38,541 nucleotides of DNA from a virus. The notes beneath the pieces were generated by a model. That model did not search any database. It was not told the DNA's origin and saw only the letters and a list, made by a program, of their open reading frames with translations. Shown here one piece after another: positions 8,426 through 22,362 of the stretch (positions within the stretch are counted from its first letter, which is position 1; the number at the start of each line of letters is the position of its first letter). The stretch lies in IMG/VR virus record IMGVR_UViG_3300031391_000006, positions 1 through 38,541 of that record; one strand, written 5' to 3'. The position numbers were made by a program, and so were the translations under genes.

Positions 8426-8749
8426 TCACCTGTCCCCCCAATCATCATTCAGGTATTCCCAATCAAGAAAGTCATGTTCTTCCCGGTCATCTGGGTATTC
8501 AGTCACTTGCATCCAATGAAAGAAGTGTTTTCCATCATCACAGAAGCAAGCCTTGGATCCTTTGTTTACTTGATAAACCTCTTGTTGTTCCCTTGCCCAA
8601 GCTTCATATGTGGCAATGATGTCATCACCCACACAATCCCGGATGTCCCCGCGTGGGTGCAAGTCACCCTCAAGCAGTTCATAAACATCTGAACCGTCGC
8701 CCTGAAGACCCACAAGGGCCTTGAATAGCTGTAAATTAAGGTAGTTCAT
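8426..8749 (-). CDS. Acidic early-islet protein, possibly a truncated SEC-C protein
   Basis: This 107-residue acidic protein begins MNYLNLQLFKALVGLQ and is rich in Asp, Glu and aromatic residues. No enzymatic motif is recognised. Its start overlaps the stop of the upstream SEC-C gene (TAATG). The end is abrupt, at D-W-G-D-R beside a run of six G, with an orphan SEC-C motif 20-90 nt further on in other frames, so the annotated product may be C-terminally shortened. It is antisense to the surrounding late genes and belongs to the islet driven from the box at 9315-9341. Confidence 0.6.
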   Translation of the reverse strand: MNYLNLQLFKALVGLQGDGSDVYELLEGDLHPRGDIRDCVGDDIIATYEAWAREQQEVYQVNKGSKACFCDDGKHFFHWMQVTEYPDDREEHDFLDWEYLNDDWGDR

Positions 8750-9075
8750 TATTGGACTTCAAAGGGGGTGAAATCTTTGAATGTGGCATTGTCCAGCAAC
8801 TTCAGGACCGCCAACAACTGATTGTGTTGTTCTGCAAGCTTCCGTGCGTGTTGGAAGTCCCCATTCAAGTTGGTAATGTGGAAGTCCCGGTCCGCCCGTG
8901 CAAAGCGCAAGCAGATGTTTTTAGGGGTTTGGTCAATACAGCACTTTTTGAACTTCTTGCCGGACTCACAGGGGCACGGGGCATTGCGTCCGGTCTTGCT
9001 CATATCAATGCCTTTGTGGGCACAGACAACGGCAATGTGTTTGTTGGGGTTGAATGGTGTTTTATTTGGGTCCAT
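8749..9075 (-). CDS. SEC-C motif protein
   Basis: This 108-residue protein begins MDPNKTPFNPNKH. Residues 29-47 are a canonical SEC-C motif: G-R-N-A-P-C-P-C then G-K-K-F-K-K-C-C, with C34, C36, C45 and C46 binding zinc. In SecA this motif contacts SecB or ribosomes. In standalone phage and bacterial proteins its role is unknown, and it is often appended to other domains. The C-terminal 60 residues are helical with no known fold. A start at the internal Met25 just before the motif is possible. The gene is in a three-gene leftward islet inside the late region. Confidence 0.75.
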   Translation of the reverse strand: MDPNKTPFNPNKHIAVVCAHKGIDMSKTGRNAPCPCESGKKFKKCCIDQTPKNICLRFARADRDFHITNLNGDFQHARKLAEQHNQLLAVLKLLDNATFKDFTPFEVQ

Positions 9076-9394: not shown

Positions 9395-10846
9395 ATGCCA
9401 AAAGTTGACCATAAACGCAAAGAAGTTTCAGACAACCAAAAGAGTTGGAAACTGATTTCTGACTGTGTTGCCGGGGAAGAAACCATCAAGAAGGCAAAGG
9501 AACTCTATTTGCCAAACCCCACAGCGGAACTTGACAGCGAGTATAGCAAGAAGCGGTTCAAAGCATATGTGCAACGGGCGGTCTTCTACAATGTGACCGG
9601 ACGGACCCTTGACGGTCTTGTTGGTCAAGTCTTTAGCAAGGACTCAGAATCAGACTTGCCCGGTGATGTTGAACGATATGAAGCAGACATTGACGGTGCT
9701 GGGACACCCCTTGAACAGCAAGCCAAGGCAACGTTAAAGGCAACAGTTGGCAAAGGTCACTGCGGGCTTTTGTCTGACTTCCCGGCAACTGGGGATGCAA
9801 CCACCAAGGAAGACATTGAAACTTTACGAATCCGCCCGCGTGTGATTCTCATTCAACCGGAACAAATCATCAATTGGCGTGTGACTGCGGTTGGTGGTGA
9901 AACCCTGCTTTCCTTGGTTGTGATTGAAGAATCCACTATTGTTGAAGATGACGGTTTTGAATTTAAGAAAGAACCCCGTTGGCGGGAAATACGCTTGATG
10001 CCAGTGAATGAGGAAAACACCCAATTTGCGGCGGTGGTGACACTGTGGAAAAAGCTTGAAAAACCCATTGATGGGGAAGACTTCGCAATTGTTGAAGGTT
10101 TCCCGGTTGTCCTTCAGGACCACAGGGGGCAACCCCTTGACAGAATCCCATTTGAATTTGTGGGGGCTGTGAACAATGAACCATGTATTGACAAAGCCCC
10201 TTTGCTTGACCTTGCCAACCTGAATGTGGCACATTATCGCAATTCAGCGGATTATGAAGAAGGGGTCTTTATTACCGGACAGGACACATTGGTTTTGACC
10301 GGGCTTCAACAAGAATGGGTGGACAAAAACTTCAAAGATGGGGTCAAGCTTGGGTCCCGGTCTGCAATCCCATTGCCCAAGGACGCGGATGCCAAGTTGC
10401 TTCACACAGAAGCCAACGGGATTGCAGCGGAAGCAATGAAGCACAAAGAAGAACAAATGAAGGCATTGGGTGCCAAGCTGATTGAACCAATGGCAACCAA
10501 GGGGACAGCAACAGAAGCATTGATTGAAGAATCAAGTGAATCTTCTGTCTTGTCCAGTGCTGCAAAGAATGTATCCGCTGCATACCGCAAAGCCCTTTTC
10601 CATGCTTCCCGGTTCGTTGCAGACGTGGACCCCAAAACCATCATCTTTGAATTAAATTCAGATTTTGCGGCGGCAATGGCAAGCCCACAGGAACGCGCAC
10701 AAATCGTTGCAGAGTGGCAAGGTGGTCTTATCACCTTTGATGAAGCCCGGACACAGTTACGCAAAGCGGGTGTTGCCACAGAAGATGACAAAACCGCCAA
10801 ATCCAAGATGGAAGACAACATCATCCCGGTTGAACCTGTTATCTAA
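9395..10846 (+). CDS. Portal protein, DUF4055 type
   Basis: This 483-residue protein begins MPKVDHKRKEVSDNQ. The family pattern is visible throughout: N-terminal W-K-L-I-S-D-C-V-A-G, Y-V-Q-R-A-V-F-Y-N-V-T-G-R-T-L-D-G-L-V-G near 65-86, a central I-Q-P-E-Q-I-I-N-W-R at about 152-161, and the R-I-P-F-E-F-V-G segment followed by P-L-L-D-L-A-N-L-N-V-A-H-Y. The C-terminal helical crown includes acidic clusters. Twelve copies would form the DNA-entry vertex. It is separated from terL by the antisense islet. The stop overlaps the MuF start (TAATG). Confidence 0.88.
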   Translation: MPKVDHKRKEVSDNQKSWKLISDCVAGEETIKKAKELYLPNPTAELDSEYSKKRFKAYVQRAVFYNVTGRTLDGLVGQVFSKDSESDLPGDVERYEADIDGAGTPLEQQAKATLKATVGKGHCGLLSDFPATGDATTKEDIETLRIRPRVILIQPEQIINWRVTAVGGETLLSLVVIEESTIVEDDGFEFKKEPRWREIRLMPVNEENTQFAAVVTLWKKLEKPIDGEDFAIVEGFPVVLQDHRGQPLDRIPFEFVGAVNNEPCIDKAPLLDLANLNVAHYRNSADYEEGVFITGQDTLVLTGLQQEWVDKNFKDGVKLGSRSAIPLPKDADAKLLHTEANGIAAEAMKHKEEQMKALGAKLIEPMATKGTATEALIEESSESSVLSSAAKNVSAAYRKALFHASRFVADVDPKTIIFELNSDFAAAMASPQERAQIVAEWQGGLITFDEARTQLRKAGVATEDDKTAKSKMEDNIIPVEPVI

Positions 10847-12774
10847 TGCCAATCAACAAAGCACTTCTTGATTTAGCAATCCGGCGGCAAGTCACACTTG
10901 AACAATTGAAGTCCGGGCAAGTCCGGGACTTCAACAAGGTGTTTGCGGACATTTCCGCAACTGTCCGGTCTGAACTTGCCAAGGTGGGGGAACTGACAGA
11001 CCTGAACAAACAAACAGTCAACCGCTTGTTGGGGACATACAAAACACGGGTTCACAATATTTACACAAAGCAAATCCAGCTTTTCACACCACAGCTTGAG
11101 CAGGTTGCCGGGGTATATGCTTCGATGGAAGGCATTGACATTGCTTCAAGCCTTACAGGTGGGGTCAAGGTAGCCTCAGCAACCCCCAAGCAAGCGTTCA
11201 GGTTGGCAACAACACAAGCAATGTCACATTCCGGGGAAACCATGAATGATTTCATTGGCAAGCTTGCAGACGGGGAAACAAGCCGGGTGGCCAACACTGT
11301 CCGGCAAGGGTTCTTCCAAGGGCGGACCAACCAACAAATTGTGAAGTCTATTATTGGGACCAAGGCGAACAGATACAAAGATGGGATTCTTGAAGTGTCC
11401 CGGCGGAATGCAAAAGCAGTGATTCAAACATCTGTCCAACACGTTGCCAGTGTGGGCAGAATGGCAACTTGGAAAGCCAACAAGGACATTGTTGAAAAAT
11501 ATCAATGGGTTTCAACGTTGGATTCCAAGACATCAAACATATGTAAAGGGCTTGATGGGGAACAATACGTCATTGATGCGGGCCCAGTGCCCCCAATCCA
11601 TGTGAATTGCAGGTCAACCACCATTGCGGTAATGAACCCCAAGTTTGATTTCCTTTCTGAAGGGCGGACCCGCTCAACTGAGTTTGGCCCGGTTGATGCA
11701 AAGAAAAGCTATTATGATTGGTTAAAAGACCAAGACGCGGGATTTCAAGACAAGGCACTTGGCAAATCGCGGGCTGGACTGTTCAGGAATGGCGGTCTGT
11801 CCCCCAAGCAGTTTAAAGACCTGAGCTTAGACAAGAACTTCAACCCCCTTTCCTTGGATGAAATGAAGTTGCAAGAACCGGAAGCATTCAAGAAAGCCTT
11901 TGGTGGGGGTGCCCCTGCCCCTGTGGTCAAGGCTCCGGCGGTCAAGGTGACAACGCCACAACAGACAAAACAGGATGTATTGGCATTGCGTGAAAAATAT
12001 GATGGCTTGCGGATTGCCAACGAAGCAGAACAAGAAGCGAACATGGTGACGTTGAATTCCTTAAAAACAGAACAAGAACAATTGGACTTTCTGGACGGTG
12101 ACTTCAAAGCCACACGCCACAGGGGTTATGAATTAGATGGTGAAATGAGGAAAGAAGCACATGAAGCGTTGTTCCTGCCAAAAGAATTGCACACACCGCA
12201 CAATAAAGTTGTTACAAACTTAGGCACATATTCAGGAAAGTTTGGAAGTGACAACGTTGTTGCGGCAGAATTTGTTGGGAAAATGGTGGTCCCAAAACTT
12301 GTGCCCACTGTTTCAATAAACAAGCTGAACAAGCGTTCAGATTATAACTGGCTTACAAAAACGGCAAATGTCAGAAGTGACGCGGGGACAAGCGTCCACA
12401 TCCATGAAATAATCCATGACATTGAAATTAAACACCCGGACATTTCAGCAAGGGTGAAAGAGTTTAGGGAAAACAGAATGCCGGGGGATGTGGCACAAAA
12501 GCTTTCTAAGATCACAGGCAACACAGATTTTGATGCAAATGAATGGGCATATGAAGACCATTGGAAAGAAAAAGGTTGGAGCCAATACGCGGGCAAAGAG
12601 TATGACCTTGACCGAACAAAATATAGAGGTAAAAGGCGGTTTTCTGTTGAAAACCGAAGGGCAACGGAAGTTTTGACAATGGGAACTGAGCGTCTTTTCA
12701 ATGACCCAATTGGGTTTGCACAGATGGACCCGGAAGGGTTTGAATTTATCCTTTCAATCCTCCGGGGGTTTTAG
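10846..12774 (+). CDS. MuF head-morphogenesis protein with C-terminal zincin-like domain
   Basis: The protein has 642 residues, about twice the length of a plain MuF protein. Residues 1-265 hold the phage head-morphogenesis domain, with T-S-V-Q-H-V-A-S-V-G-R and the closing I-H-V-N-C-R-S-T-T-I motif near 251-260. A Pro/Ala/Gly linker follows at about 350-375. The C-terminal region carries H-E-I-I-H at 520-524, the HExxH zinc-peptidase signature, with further conserved-looking acid and aromatic positions (N-R-R-A-T-E-V-L-T near 605). MuF proteins with variable C-terminal enzymatic domains are known and may be delivered with DNA. That role is inferred here. The stop overlaps the convergent gene's stop. 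Confidence 0.85.
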   Translation: MPINKALLDLAIRRQVTLEQLKSGQVRDFNKVFADISATVRSELAKVGELTDLNKQTVNRLLGTYKTRVHNIYTKQIQLFTPQLEQVAGVYASMEGIDIASSLTGGVKVASATPKQAFRLATTQAMSHSGETMNDFIGKLADGETSRVANTVRQGFFQGRTNQQIVKSIIGTKANRYKDGILEVSRRNAKAVIQTSVQHVASVGRMATWKANKDIVEKYQWVSTLDSKTSNICKGLDGEQYVIDAGPVPPIHVNCRSTTIAVMNPKFDFLSEGRTRSTEFGPVDAKKSYYDWLKDQDAGFQDKALGKSRAGLFRNGGLSPKQFKDLSLDKNFNPLSLDEMKLQEPEAFKKAFGGGAPAPVVKAPAVKVTTPQQTKQDVLALREKYDGLRIANEAEQEANMVTLNSLKTEQEQLDFLDGDFKATRHRGYELDGEMRKEAHEALFLPKELHTPHNKVVTNLGTYSGKFGSDNVVAAEFVGKMVVPKLVPTVSINKLNKRSDYNWLTKTANVRSDAGTSVHIHEIIHDIEIKHPDISARVKEFRENRMPGDVAQKLSKITGNTDFDANEWAYEDHWKEKGWSQYAGKEYDLDRTKYRGKRRFSVENRRATEVLTMGTERLFNDPIGFAQMDPEGFEFILSILRGF

Positions 12775-13013
12775 TGGACCAAAAAAGAAGCCGGGTCTTC
12801 ATAACCCACAGGTTCCGGGGTTATCATTTCCCCGCCCAATGAACCACAAACAGCTTGCACAAAATGCCAAGCGGTGGGGTAGCCCCCTTCTTGGTGTTTT
12901 GAAGCAGCGGTTTCAACTTCAGCCCGGTCAAAGTCATCCATTTGAAAAACCCCATTTGCATGGGCAATGGTGGCAGTTTGACCAACAACATTTTTATATT
13001 TGAAAATTATCAT
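12771..13013 (-). CDS. Antisense islet protein 2, function unknown
   Basis: This 80-residue protein begins MIIFKYKNVVGQTATI. The N-terminal half looks strand-rich, and residues 25-65 contain F-D-R-A-E-V-E-T-A-A-S-K-H-Q-E-G-G-Y. No motif is recognised and there is no membrane segment. Its start overlaps the upstream stop (ATGA), and its stop overlaps the MuF stop on the other strand. It is the second gene of a two-gene leftward islet under an early-type box. Confidence 0.6.
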   Translation of the reverse strand: MIIFKYKNVVGQTATIAHANGVFQMDDFDRAEVETAASKHQEGGYPTAWHFVQAVCGSLGGEMITPEPVGYEDPASFLVH

Positions 13014-13225
13014 GGTGAAAGTGTGAACGAAAACCCCAATTGGGTCAATTCATTCAAAAGCAGTGTGTCCACAGCAAAGGGACCACCGGGGTTGAAGACT
13101 GTTTTGTTGCGGCGGAACGTTGAAAAACCCTTCCGGTGCAAATAGTCCATTTCCGCCCCAGTTGCACCAACAAGCAAAATGATGTCAGAACCAACCTTTG
13201 TGAATCTAAAGAATTTATTCCCCAT
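13010..13225 (-). CDS. Antisense islet protein 1, function unknown
   Basis: This 71-residue protein begins MGNKFFRFTKVGSD and contains a hydrophobic strand I-I-L-L-V-G-A-T-G-A-E near 15-25 and a central basic segment. No family is recognised. The start codon sits 8 nt downstream of the perfect palindrome at 13234-13247 and 29 nt after TTGACA, the same spacing as in the clamp-like gene at 35987. This strongly suggests shared early expression. It lies between the MuF and scaffold genes, antisense to both. Confidence 0.6.
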   Translation of the reverse strand: MGNKFFRFTKVGSDIILLVGATGAEMDYLHRKGFSTFRRNKTVFNPGGPFAVDTLLLNELTQLGFSFTLSP

Positions 13226-16256: not shown

Positions 16257-16814
16257 ATGGCTTTTAATTACACACAAGCGGCGGCAACCGCCAAAAGACT
16301 GATTGCCAACTTCGGCGCGGTCGGAGAGATTCGTGCCTACAATGGTGTAATTGATGGTGTCACCGGATTAGTCACAGATGACTACTCAAAGACTGTGGCA
16401 ACCCTTGTGACAGTGCCTTCGGTTGATTCACTGATACGATTTGATGACACCTTTAAGGAGTCACTGGCGACTGGCAAAGCGCGGGTTTTCTTGGTTGCGG
16501 CAAGTGGTCTTGCTTTTGCACCAGAGCCGGGCAACTGCATTTTGCATGAAGGCAAGCTTTGGGAAATTGGCAGTGGTCCCGGTCAAGGTGGGGTGATGCC
16601 ATTGAATCCGGCAGGGACTGCGGTAATGTTTATTTGTGGGTGCATGTTAGGGGGGCGCAACCCAGATCCCATGAGTGCGTTCTCGGGTGAATCCCTCGAA
16701 CTTTTTGAGCATTACGGTGACACGCTGGAACAAATGTTTGCAGCGGGAGATCCGCTAAACCAGTTTGTTAATGTGGCTCTCCCACAGAGTTTTAAACTTA
16801 CCCAAAACCAGTAA
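16257..16814 (+). CDS. Head-closure (stopper-like) protein with appended 41-residue C-terminal module
   Basis: This 185-residue protein begins MAFNYTQAAATAKRLI. The N-terminal 125 residues have the opening helix and beta-barrel style of head-closure proteins (A-K-R-L-I-A-N-F-G-A-V-G-E-I-R-A-Y, then segments near V-A-T-L-V-T-V-P). The last 41 residues (16689-16814, E-L-F-E-H-Y-G-D-T-L-E-Q-M to the end) are closely similar to the C-terminus of the minor tail protein at 21859, with about 26 identical positions. The head domain should end before that module, so it looks like an added tag. Function of the core is assigned from position and fold pattern. Confidence 0.7.
   Translation: MAFNYTQAAATAKRLIANFGAVGEIRAYNGVIDGVTGLVTDDYSKTVATLVTVPSVDSLIRFDDTFKESLATGKARVFLVAASGLAFAPEPGNCILHEGKLWEIGSGPGQGGVMPLNPAGTAVMFICGCMLGGRNPDPMSAFSGESLELFEHYGDTLEQMFAAGDPLNQFVNVALPQSFKLTQNQ
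16689..16814 (+). repeat. C-terminal module, copy 1 (partner at 22237-22362)
   Basis: This is the matching module at the end of the head-closure protein. In both cases it is followed within 10 nt by the next gene start, so the segment behaves as a C-terminal unit attached to unrelated folds. Confidence 0.9.
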
Positions 16815-21858: not shown

Positions 21859-22362
21859 ATGACTACTACAATCACATACCCGGCGCAGCTCCCGAAACCG
21901 TCCGCTCGATACTCATTCACGAAGGAAGATGGTGCGATTACTACAAAATTTCAATCCGGCAAGACACGGCGGCGCAATGCTTACAACGACCTGCGCCGGG
22001 AGGTCTCTTTGCAGTGGGAGTTTTCGCAGCGTGAGCTAGACTTTTTCCAAAGCTGGTATTCATACACGCTCAACAATGGGGCCGAAAACTTCCTTACTGA
22101 TTTGCTCCTTGATGCAGACAGCTACCAAAATTACGAAGTCACTCCAATGGGCGACATTAAAGTGACCCATTTTGGGGTAGGTTACTTTAAAGTGAGCTTA
22201 AAAGTGCTTTGTCTCGCTCAAAAATACCTTTCCGCTGAAGCTGTCGAACTGTTTCAGCACTACGGTGACACTTTTGAAGAAATGCTTGCAACAGGCGACC
22301 CTCTCAATCAGTTTATAAATGTGACTCTACCAACAAATTTTCAACTACTCGAAAACCAATAA
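21859..22362 (+). CDS. Minor tail protein with the same appended C-terminal module
   Basis: This 167-residue protein begins MTTTITYPAQLPKPSARYS. The N-terminal 125 residues (Y-P-A-Q-L-P-K-P-S, then T-R-R-R-N-A-Y-N-D-L, then F-S-Q-R-E-L-D-F-F-Q-S-W-Y and F-K-V-S-L-K) match a common phage tail family placed after the tape measure, in the position of lambda gpM. The last 41 residues (22237-22362) duplicate the module at the end of the head-closure protein (16689-16814). The usual family would end near the F-K-V-S-L-K strand, so the module is extra. Confidence 0.75.
   Translation: MTTTITYPAQLPKPSARYSFTKEDGAITTKFQSGKTRRRNAYNDLRREVSLQWEFSQRELDFFQSWYSYTLNNGAENFLTDLLLDADSYQNYEVTPMGDIKVTHFGVGYFKVSLKVLCLAQKYLSAEAVELFQHYGDTFEEMLATGDPLNQFINVTLPTNFQLLENQ
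22237..22362 (+). repeat. C-terminal module, copy 2 (partner at 16689-16814)
   Basis: The two 126-nt segments encode 41 residues each, with about 26 identical (63% by hand count). Shared cores are H-Y-G-D-T, G-D-P-L-N-Q-F and a final N-Q, and both stop at the same residue. The DNA differs at many synonymous sites, so this is an old duplication or a common acquisition. Confidence 0.9.

What the first reader, a model, noticed from the sequence alone, without database searches (positions are those of the whole stretch)
10846..12774. MuF capsid protein fused to a zinc-peptidase-like domain
After the MuF domain and a Pro/Ala linker, the C-terminus holds H-E-I-I-H (520-524). MuF proteins with variable enzymatic tails are thought to act as effectors carried in the virion. 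A zincin version could process capsid proteins or attack host targets after delivery.
Basis: partly seen in the sequence, partly recalled or inferred. Interest (0 to 1): 0.52.

Follow-up and report, generated by a model that had tools for sequence, protein, structure and literature searches.

The report
Phage capsid protein carrying swappable protease tail
A phage head protein carries a zinc-protease-like tail that related phages lack or exchange, and such tails are usually followed by a small gene with a characteristic end that may keep the protease in check; the fusion itself is of a known kind.

Summary
The 642-aa ORF has a MuF domain (residues 148-260) and a C-terminal zincin with HEIIH at 520-524; the third ligand candidate is E608. 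AlphaFold models residues 375-642 well (pLDDT 87.5), and the best solved matches are Pro-Pro endopeptidases and the lethal-factor zincin fold. No Pfam model covers this tail, but a PHROG model does, and 15 aligned sequences, phage P1 DdrB among them, share its active-site residues.

Tail exchange at the linker is shown. Nine MuF relatives stop at the linker; one has the same zincin; two nearly identical phages carry unrelated tails between 86-91% identical flanks, and the exchanged block includes the next small ORF.

New here: the zincin gene is followed by a small ORF in 64 of 74 dereplicated loci (31 of 34 later ones), against 1 of 16 tailless MuF genes. These small proteins often end in [IV][YF] (39 of 71; 8 of 759 control frames), P1 Hxr behind DdrB included. 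In the window the candidate partner is the convergent ORF 12771-13013; its homology is only suggestive.

Best reading: a virion-carried MuF protease effector with a small cognate inhibitor. MuF-metallopeptidase toxins are known; the partners' shared end was not met in the papers searched. Catalysis, delivery and inhibition are untested.

The parts
10846..12774 (+). MuF-zincin gene, 642 aa
   Evidence: open frame; PF04233 and phrog_241
11287..11625 (+). MuF (SPP1 gp7-like) domain, residues 148-260
   Evidence: PF04233 E 5.3e-13; TIGR01641 E 3.3e-15 at 158-262
11881..11970 (+). linker, the point at which tailless relatives end and tails are exchanged (about residues 346-375)
12283..12771 (+). 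zincin domain, about residues 480-642; HEIIH 520-524, candidate third ligand E608
   Evidence: phrog_33618, conservation, model, fold matches
12403..12417 (+). HEIIH codons (residues 520-524)
12667..12669 (+). E608 codon, candidate third zinc ligand
12771..13013 (-). candidate small partner (80 aa), convergent, overlapping the end of the zincin gene by 4 bases
   Evidence: best of 512 window frames to the partner profile but at E 0.13-0.2 only; 3 of 5000 shuffles reach its score; two other loci have a clear convergent partner
13010..13225 (-). 71-aa ORF upstream of the candidate partner, overlapping its start by 4 bases, unknown function

Best explanation
The gene encodes a MuF head protein whose C-terminal tail is an apparently intact zincin metallopeptidase of the lethal-factor/PPEP-like fold. 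The MuF part places the protein in the capsid near the portal; the protease leaves with the DNA and cuts protein(s) in the newly entered cell, perhaps after freeing itself at the Pro-rich linker. In the cell that makes the phage, the small protein encoded next to the zincin binds it and keeps it inactive, probably with its extended C-terminal tail (acidic and Pro-rich, in many members ending in hydrophobic residues and Tyr/Phe) in the substrate cleft. Shown here: the fusion, the conserved active-site residues, the predicted fold, exchange of tail plus small ORF as one cassette in a pair of related phages, and the zincin-small ORF association. Inferred: packaging, ejection, catalysis, target, and inhibition by the small protein; in this window also the identity of the partner.
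For: Active-site residues invariant in 15 of 15 aligned sequences not filtered by motif. AF2 pLDDT 87.5, pTM 0.77; VIA-align Z 8.9 to PPEP-2 (rmsd 3.1, 132 aligned), 8.2 to PPEP-1 and PPEP-3, about 8.1 to lethal factor. MuF relatives: of 16 loci 4 are this phage, 9 tailless, 3 tailed; 8 of 8 cultured relatives fetched are tailless. L162/L163: MuF 98% identical, flanks 86% and 91% identical, no alignable DNA over tail plus small ORF. Small same-strand ORF in 64 of 74 dereplicated zincin loci and 31 of 34 later ones with the same criteria, versus 1 of 16 tailless MuF genes and 35 of 322 other long frames. Small ORFs ending [IV][YF]: 39 of 71 versus 8 of 759 long frames, 17 of 31 later, 0 of 35 control small ORFs. 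P1 DdrB is found in the virion, while 'hxr' does not occur in the held text of that virion proteome paper.
Against: No activity, delivery or binding was measured. P1 hxr and ddrB are both scored nonessential in a CRISPRi screen, which speaks against a protease that is lethal in lytic growth without its partner. The window's candidate partner is convergent, does not reach a significant profile score (E 0.13-0.2), its C-terminus (FLVH) lacks the aromatic end, its model is poor (pLDDT 63.4) and finds no fold match. Foldseek itself found no PDB match at E <= 0.001, and a Z near 8 is only middling by the tool's own note. HEIIH has Ile where nearly all relatives have Gly, Ala or Ser.
Confidence: 0.55

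Rival explanations
1. Maturation or self-processing protease: the zincin trims the MuF protein or other head proteins during assembly, as proposed for P1 DdrB, and is not an effector. The small ORF is a regulator or a substrate.
For: Iyer et al. 2017 propose autoproteolysis of DdrB before packaging, citing a processed 76-kDa form (PMC5512222, passages). The Pro-rich linker and the match to Pro-Pro endopeptidases would fit self-cleavage.
Against: Nine MuF relatives and 8 of 8 cultured ones do without any tail, so it is not needed for assembly in them; tails are exchanged for unrelated ones; P1 virions yielded DdrB peptides covering 59.5% of the protein, which does not decide whether it is cut.
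Confidence: 0.25
2. The small ORF is a chaperone or packaging adaptor for the zincin tail rather than an inhibitor; its C-terminal tail is a docking signal.
For: The same adjacency and overlap of genes would be expected; the C-terminal end recurs among otherwise unlike families.
Against: MuF toxins with other enzymatic tails have neighbouring immunity proteins, some of which block the active site (PMC12226406, PMC11699363, passages). This is analogy, not a test.
Confidence: 0.15
3. The zincin fold is kept without catalysis and serves only as a structural decoration of the head.
For: HEIIH is an unusual version of the motif; no enzymatic data.
Against: All candidate ligands and the catalytic Glu are present and conserved across very divergent carriers.
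Confidence: 0.05

Closest known systems
MuF polymorphic toxins of temperate phages (Jamet et al. 2017, PMC5576092)
   Same: MuF N-terminus next to the portal gene and a variable enzymatic C-terminus; 20% of 191 MuF toxins had a metallopeptidase domain and 89.4% were followed by a small ORF versus 25.5% of short MuF genes (passages)
   Different: That work finds them in temperate phages; I saw no integrase or repressor among the window ORFs that I scanned (not all were scanned). Here the candidate partner is convergent.
Phage P1 DdrB and the zincin-like MPTase of polyvalent proteins (Iyer et al. 2017, PMC5512222)
   Same: The C-terminal zincin of DdrB is reached from the same family by tblastn in two steps and aligns with the same invariant residues; DdrB is carried in the virion; it too is followed by a small ORF, Hxr, ending in IVY
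   Different: DdrB has a ParB-like domain and no MuF match; the paper proposes processing, and no partner was named in the passages I read
Apk2 and Bxa MuF toxins with immunity proteins (PMC12226406, PMC11699363)
   Same: MuF toxin with adjacent small immunity genes, IapK acting by occluding the active site (passages)
   Different: (p)ppApp synthetase and ADP-ribosyltransferase tails, not zincins
Pro-Pro endopeptidases (PPEP) and the lethal factor catalytic domain (M34-type zincins; the family label is recalled)
   Same: Closest solved folds, Z 8-9 over 132-142 residues in the best rows
   Different: 8-13% identity in those rows; not capsid fusions

Membership tests
MuF (SPP1 gp7-like) minor head proteins | MuF domain above the curated cut-off | tested here: met
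   PF04233 50.1 bits vs 29.6; TIGR01641 56.4 vs 39.65
MuF (SPP1 gp7-like) minor head proteins | gene directly downstream of the portal gene | tested here: met
   ORF 9395-10846 precedes it and overlaps by one base; I did not scan that ORF against a library, but in cultured relatives the gene before the MuF homologue is annotated as portal or DUF4055
Zincin metallopeptidases | HExxH plus a third metal ligand | tested here: met
   HEIIH 520-524 and E608, invariant in 15 of 15 aligned sequences; metal binding itself not tested
Zincin metallopeptidases | zincin fold around the motif | tested here: met
   model pLDDT 87.5; top chains PPEP and lethal factor; but no Foldseek PDB match at E <= 0.001
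Zincin metallopeptidases | proteolytic activity | not testable with these tools
   needs a biochemical assay
MuF polymorphic toxins | tail exchanged at a linker among close relatives | tested here: met
MuF polymorphic toxins | cognate immunity gene next to the toxin gene | tested here: inconclusive
   no same-strand partner; the convergent ORF resembles the family at E 0.13-0.2, 3 of 5000 shuffles
MuF polymorphic toxins | toxicity | not testable with these tools
   needs expression in cells
MuF polymorphic toxins | encoded by a temperate phage | tested here: inconclusive
   no integrase or repressor among the ORFs scanned, but not all ORFs were scanned and the record may be incomplete

The most novel reading that the evidence does not exclude
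Phage-carried zincins on many unrelated carriers (MuF head proteins, P1 DdrB, Vibrio phage and plasmid proteins) share one control principle: a small, separately encoded, often acidic protein whose C-terminal tail (Pro-rich, ending in hydrophobic residues and often Tyr/Phe) plugs the protease cleft. Tail and partner move together as a cassette, and P1 Hxr, annotated as an Xre-like repressor, would be the DdrB inhibitor. The window would be a rare arrangement in which the partner is convergent.
Probability: 0.4. Interest if true: 0.75.

Novelty: new member of a known kind. Interest (0 to 1): 0.5.

Why it matters
The fusion itself is ordinary for MuF toxins. What would matter is the partner: if the small proteins inhibit the zincins, a whole class of injected phage proteases gets a common handle, and a model pair (P1 DdrB-Hxr) makes the function of the DdrB protease domain directly testable in E. 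coli laboratory strains.

Tried and rejected
Pfam and PADLOC scans and a PDB sequence search of the tail gave no significant family. Alignments with 15, 11 and 6 rows were too divergent for the locus search. The single genome scan returned one locus, and 294 genomes of that phylum gave only the same one, so host range was not explored. The model of the window partner was too weak to use. That the partner is a known Imm family: none of the 10 small ORFs scanned (8 partners of other loci or the window's candidate and its neighbour) reached a Pfam cut-off; of 10 scanned against PHROGs three matched families, all of unknown function. A co-fold of zincin and partner was considered and dropped because the alignment set the partner rows on the zincin.

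Caveats on counts. The 74-locus set leaves out loci L006-L018, zincins followed by more than 150 residues, the window and L161, and 3 loci without room. The scan pattern required HE..H, Y..[KR].Y and a following E, so losses of these residues could not be seen. One of the 64 (L147) has its real partner on the other strand and is counted for a spurious frame. The 10 misses include L067 (convergent partner), L040 (partner-like domain in a 139-aa ORF further on), three members of tandem zincin genes followed directly by another zincin gene (L038_3218, L046, L071_4387), and five without a partner that I could see. One of the 34 later loci (L244) is the contig of L161 that I had already seen. The criteria were fixed. 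The small-ORF test accepts any frame of 60-120 aa and so has a background of about one in nine (35 of 322).

Full report
What is there. The ORF 10846-12774 (+) encodes 642 aa. Its first 350 residues or so are a MuF head protein (PF04233 at 148-260; phrog_241, E 1e-117), encoded directly after the portal-like ORF. After a Gly/Pro/Ala-rich linker comes a C-terminal domain with HEIIH at 520-524 and a Glu at 608. The window is a virus record of its own; four other contigs carry the same tail, with 2 to 20 differences over 5.4-9.0 kb.

The tail is a zincin. No Pfam model matches it, but phrog_33618 (unknown function) does. tblastn finds relatives in the phages PaV-LD, pippi8-1 and GBK1 and in Leptolyngbya and Vibrio plasmids; from the Leptolyngbya tail a second step reaches 110 phage records, among them S. 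pyogenes prophages, Vibrio phages and P1 DdrB. In 15 aligned sequences, picked without a motif filter, R, H-E-x-x-H, E, two Y and the downstream E are invariant. The model of residues 375-642 is confident, and the second-look aligner puts Pro-Pro endopeptidases (Z 8.9 and 8.2) and the lethal-factor catalytic domain (about 8.1) first, followed at lower Z by other zincins such as thermolysin and astacin. Foldseek alone gave no PDB match at E <= 0.001, so the fold call rests on the aligner, the motif and the conservation together. Among viral models 7 matched at E <= 0.001, one of them from Vibrio phage VP-1, which is also in the sequence family.

Tails are exchanged. A scan for the MuF part (residues 1-345) gave 16 loci: 4 are this phage, 9 end within 14 residues after the linker point, and 3 have tails. 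L161 has the same zincin; L162 and L163 have other HExxH-bearing tails. L162 and L163 have MuF parts 98% identical and flanking DNA 86% and 91% identical, but nothing alignable over the tail and the small ORF behind it. All 8 cultured relatives that I fetched are tailless, and none of 1512 phage records matching the whole protein covers 80% of it in one place.

A small partner. Behind the zincin genes there is a small ORF (60-120 aa, starting within -40 to +20 bases, same strand) in 89 of 110 ORFs, or 64 of 74 after dereplication at 80%. With the criteria fixed, later loci gave 31 of 34. Controls: 1 of 16 tailless MuF genes, 35 of 322 other long frames. The small proteins fall into several families without detectable mutual similarity, but share a C-terminal habit: 39 of 71 end in [IV][YF] against 8 of 759 long frames; 17 of 31 in the later set; 0 of the 35 control small ORFs. 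Residues -14 to -6 hold 16.7% Pro against 5.5% in the body. The association is with the zincin and not with MuF alone: a small ORF also follows P1 DdrB (Hxr), a DdrB relative at 34% identity, and Vibrio phage and plasmid carriers without a MuF match in Pfam, though not all of these end in the motif (D506 and the Vibrio plasmid do not). Some contigs hold arrays of zincin-partner pairs.

In this window. There is no same-strand partner. The convergent ORF 12771-13013 overlaps the end of the zincin gene by 4 bases. Two other loci, L067 and L147, have a clear partner in exactly this convergent place (E 3.4e-24 and 9.5e-11 to a profile that did not include them). The window ORF is the best of 512 frames to that profile, but only at E 0.2 (0.13 after members were added); 3 of 5000 shuffles score as high. 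Profiles of four other partner families do not pick it out. Its model is poor, with a disordered last 11 residues, and finds no fold match. I take it as the probable, not proven, partner.

How it likely works. By analogy with MuF toxins whose neighbours neutralise them, some by blocking the active site (Apk2, Bxa; passages in PMC12226406 and PMC11699363), the small protein would hold the protease inactive in the producing cell; the MuF part would carry it in the head; it would act after ejection. P1 DdrB is in the virion with 39 unique peptides (PMC9024508, passages) and Dar proteins are ejected with the DNA (PMC12810830, passages). Against a lethal protease: hxr and ddrB are scored nonessential in P1 (PMC10695390, passages).

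What is known. Jamet et al. 2017 report metallopeptidase domains in 20% of 191 MuF toxins and small ORFs behind 89.4% of the toxin genes (PMC5576092, passages). Iyer et al. 2017 describe the zincin MPTase of polyvalent proteins including DdrB and propose processing, with attack on host proteins as an alternative (PMC5512222, passages). So the fusion and the general toxin-immunity layout are known. The shared C-terminal end of the partners and the DdrB-Hxr pairing as protease and partner were not met in the passages I read of the papers returned by searches; most of the listed papers I saw only as listings, and the main P1 Dar paper (Piya et al. 2017) is not held, so this is no proof of absence in print.

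Noticed in passing
window 8426-9075 (-): A second two-gene minus-strand cassette sits among the plus-strand head genes, between terminase and portal; one product has a SEC-C motif (PF02810, E 3.3e-9).
   Followed up: partly
window 13010-13225 (-): 71-aa ORF overlapping the start of the candidate partner by 4 bases; no family match at a curated cut-off.
   Followed up: partly
window 16257-16814 and 21859-22362 (+): Two ORFs of the structural region end in a similar stretch of about 40 residues (LFEHYGDTLEQMFAAGDPLNQFVNVALPQSFKLTQNQ and LFQHYGDTFEEMLATGDPLNQFINVTLPTNFQLLENQ), seen by eye.
   Followed up: no
L067:1688-4456: The MuF-zincin of this locus seems to contain an intein inside the MuF part (PF14890, E 1.8e-7, below the curated cut-off).
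   Followed up: no
L034, L039, L071: Contigs with tandem arrays of zincin gene plus small partner, on short carriers.
   Followed up: partly
L013:4557-4865 (P1 hxr): Hxr is annotated as an Xre-like repressor, but no Pfam model matches it; its place and its end (QIVY) are those of the zincin partners.
   Followed up: partly
L162:5048-6025 and L163:5048-5860: Two other HExxH-bearing tails on nearly identical MuF proteins; the L163 tail has a sub-threshold lethal-factor match (PF07737, E 0.009).
   Followed up: partly
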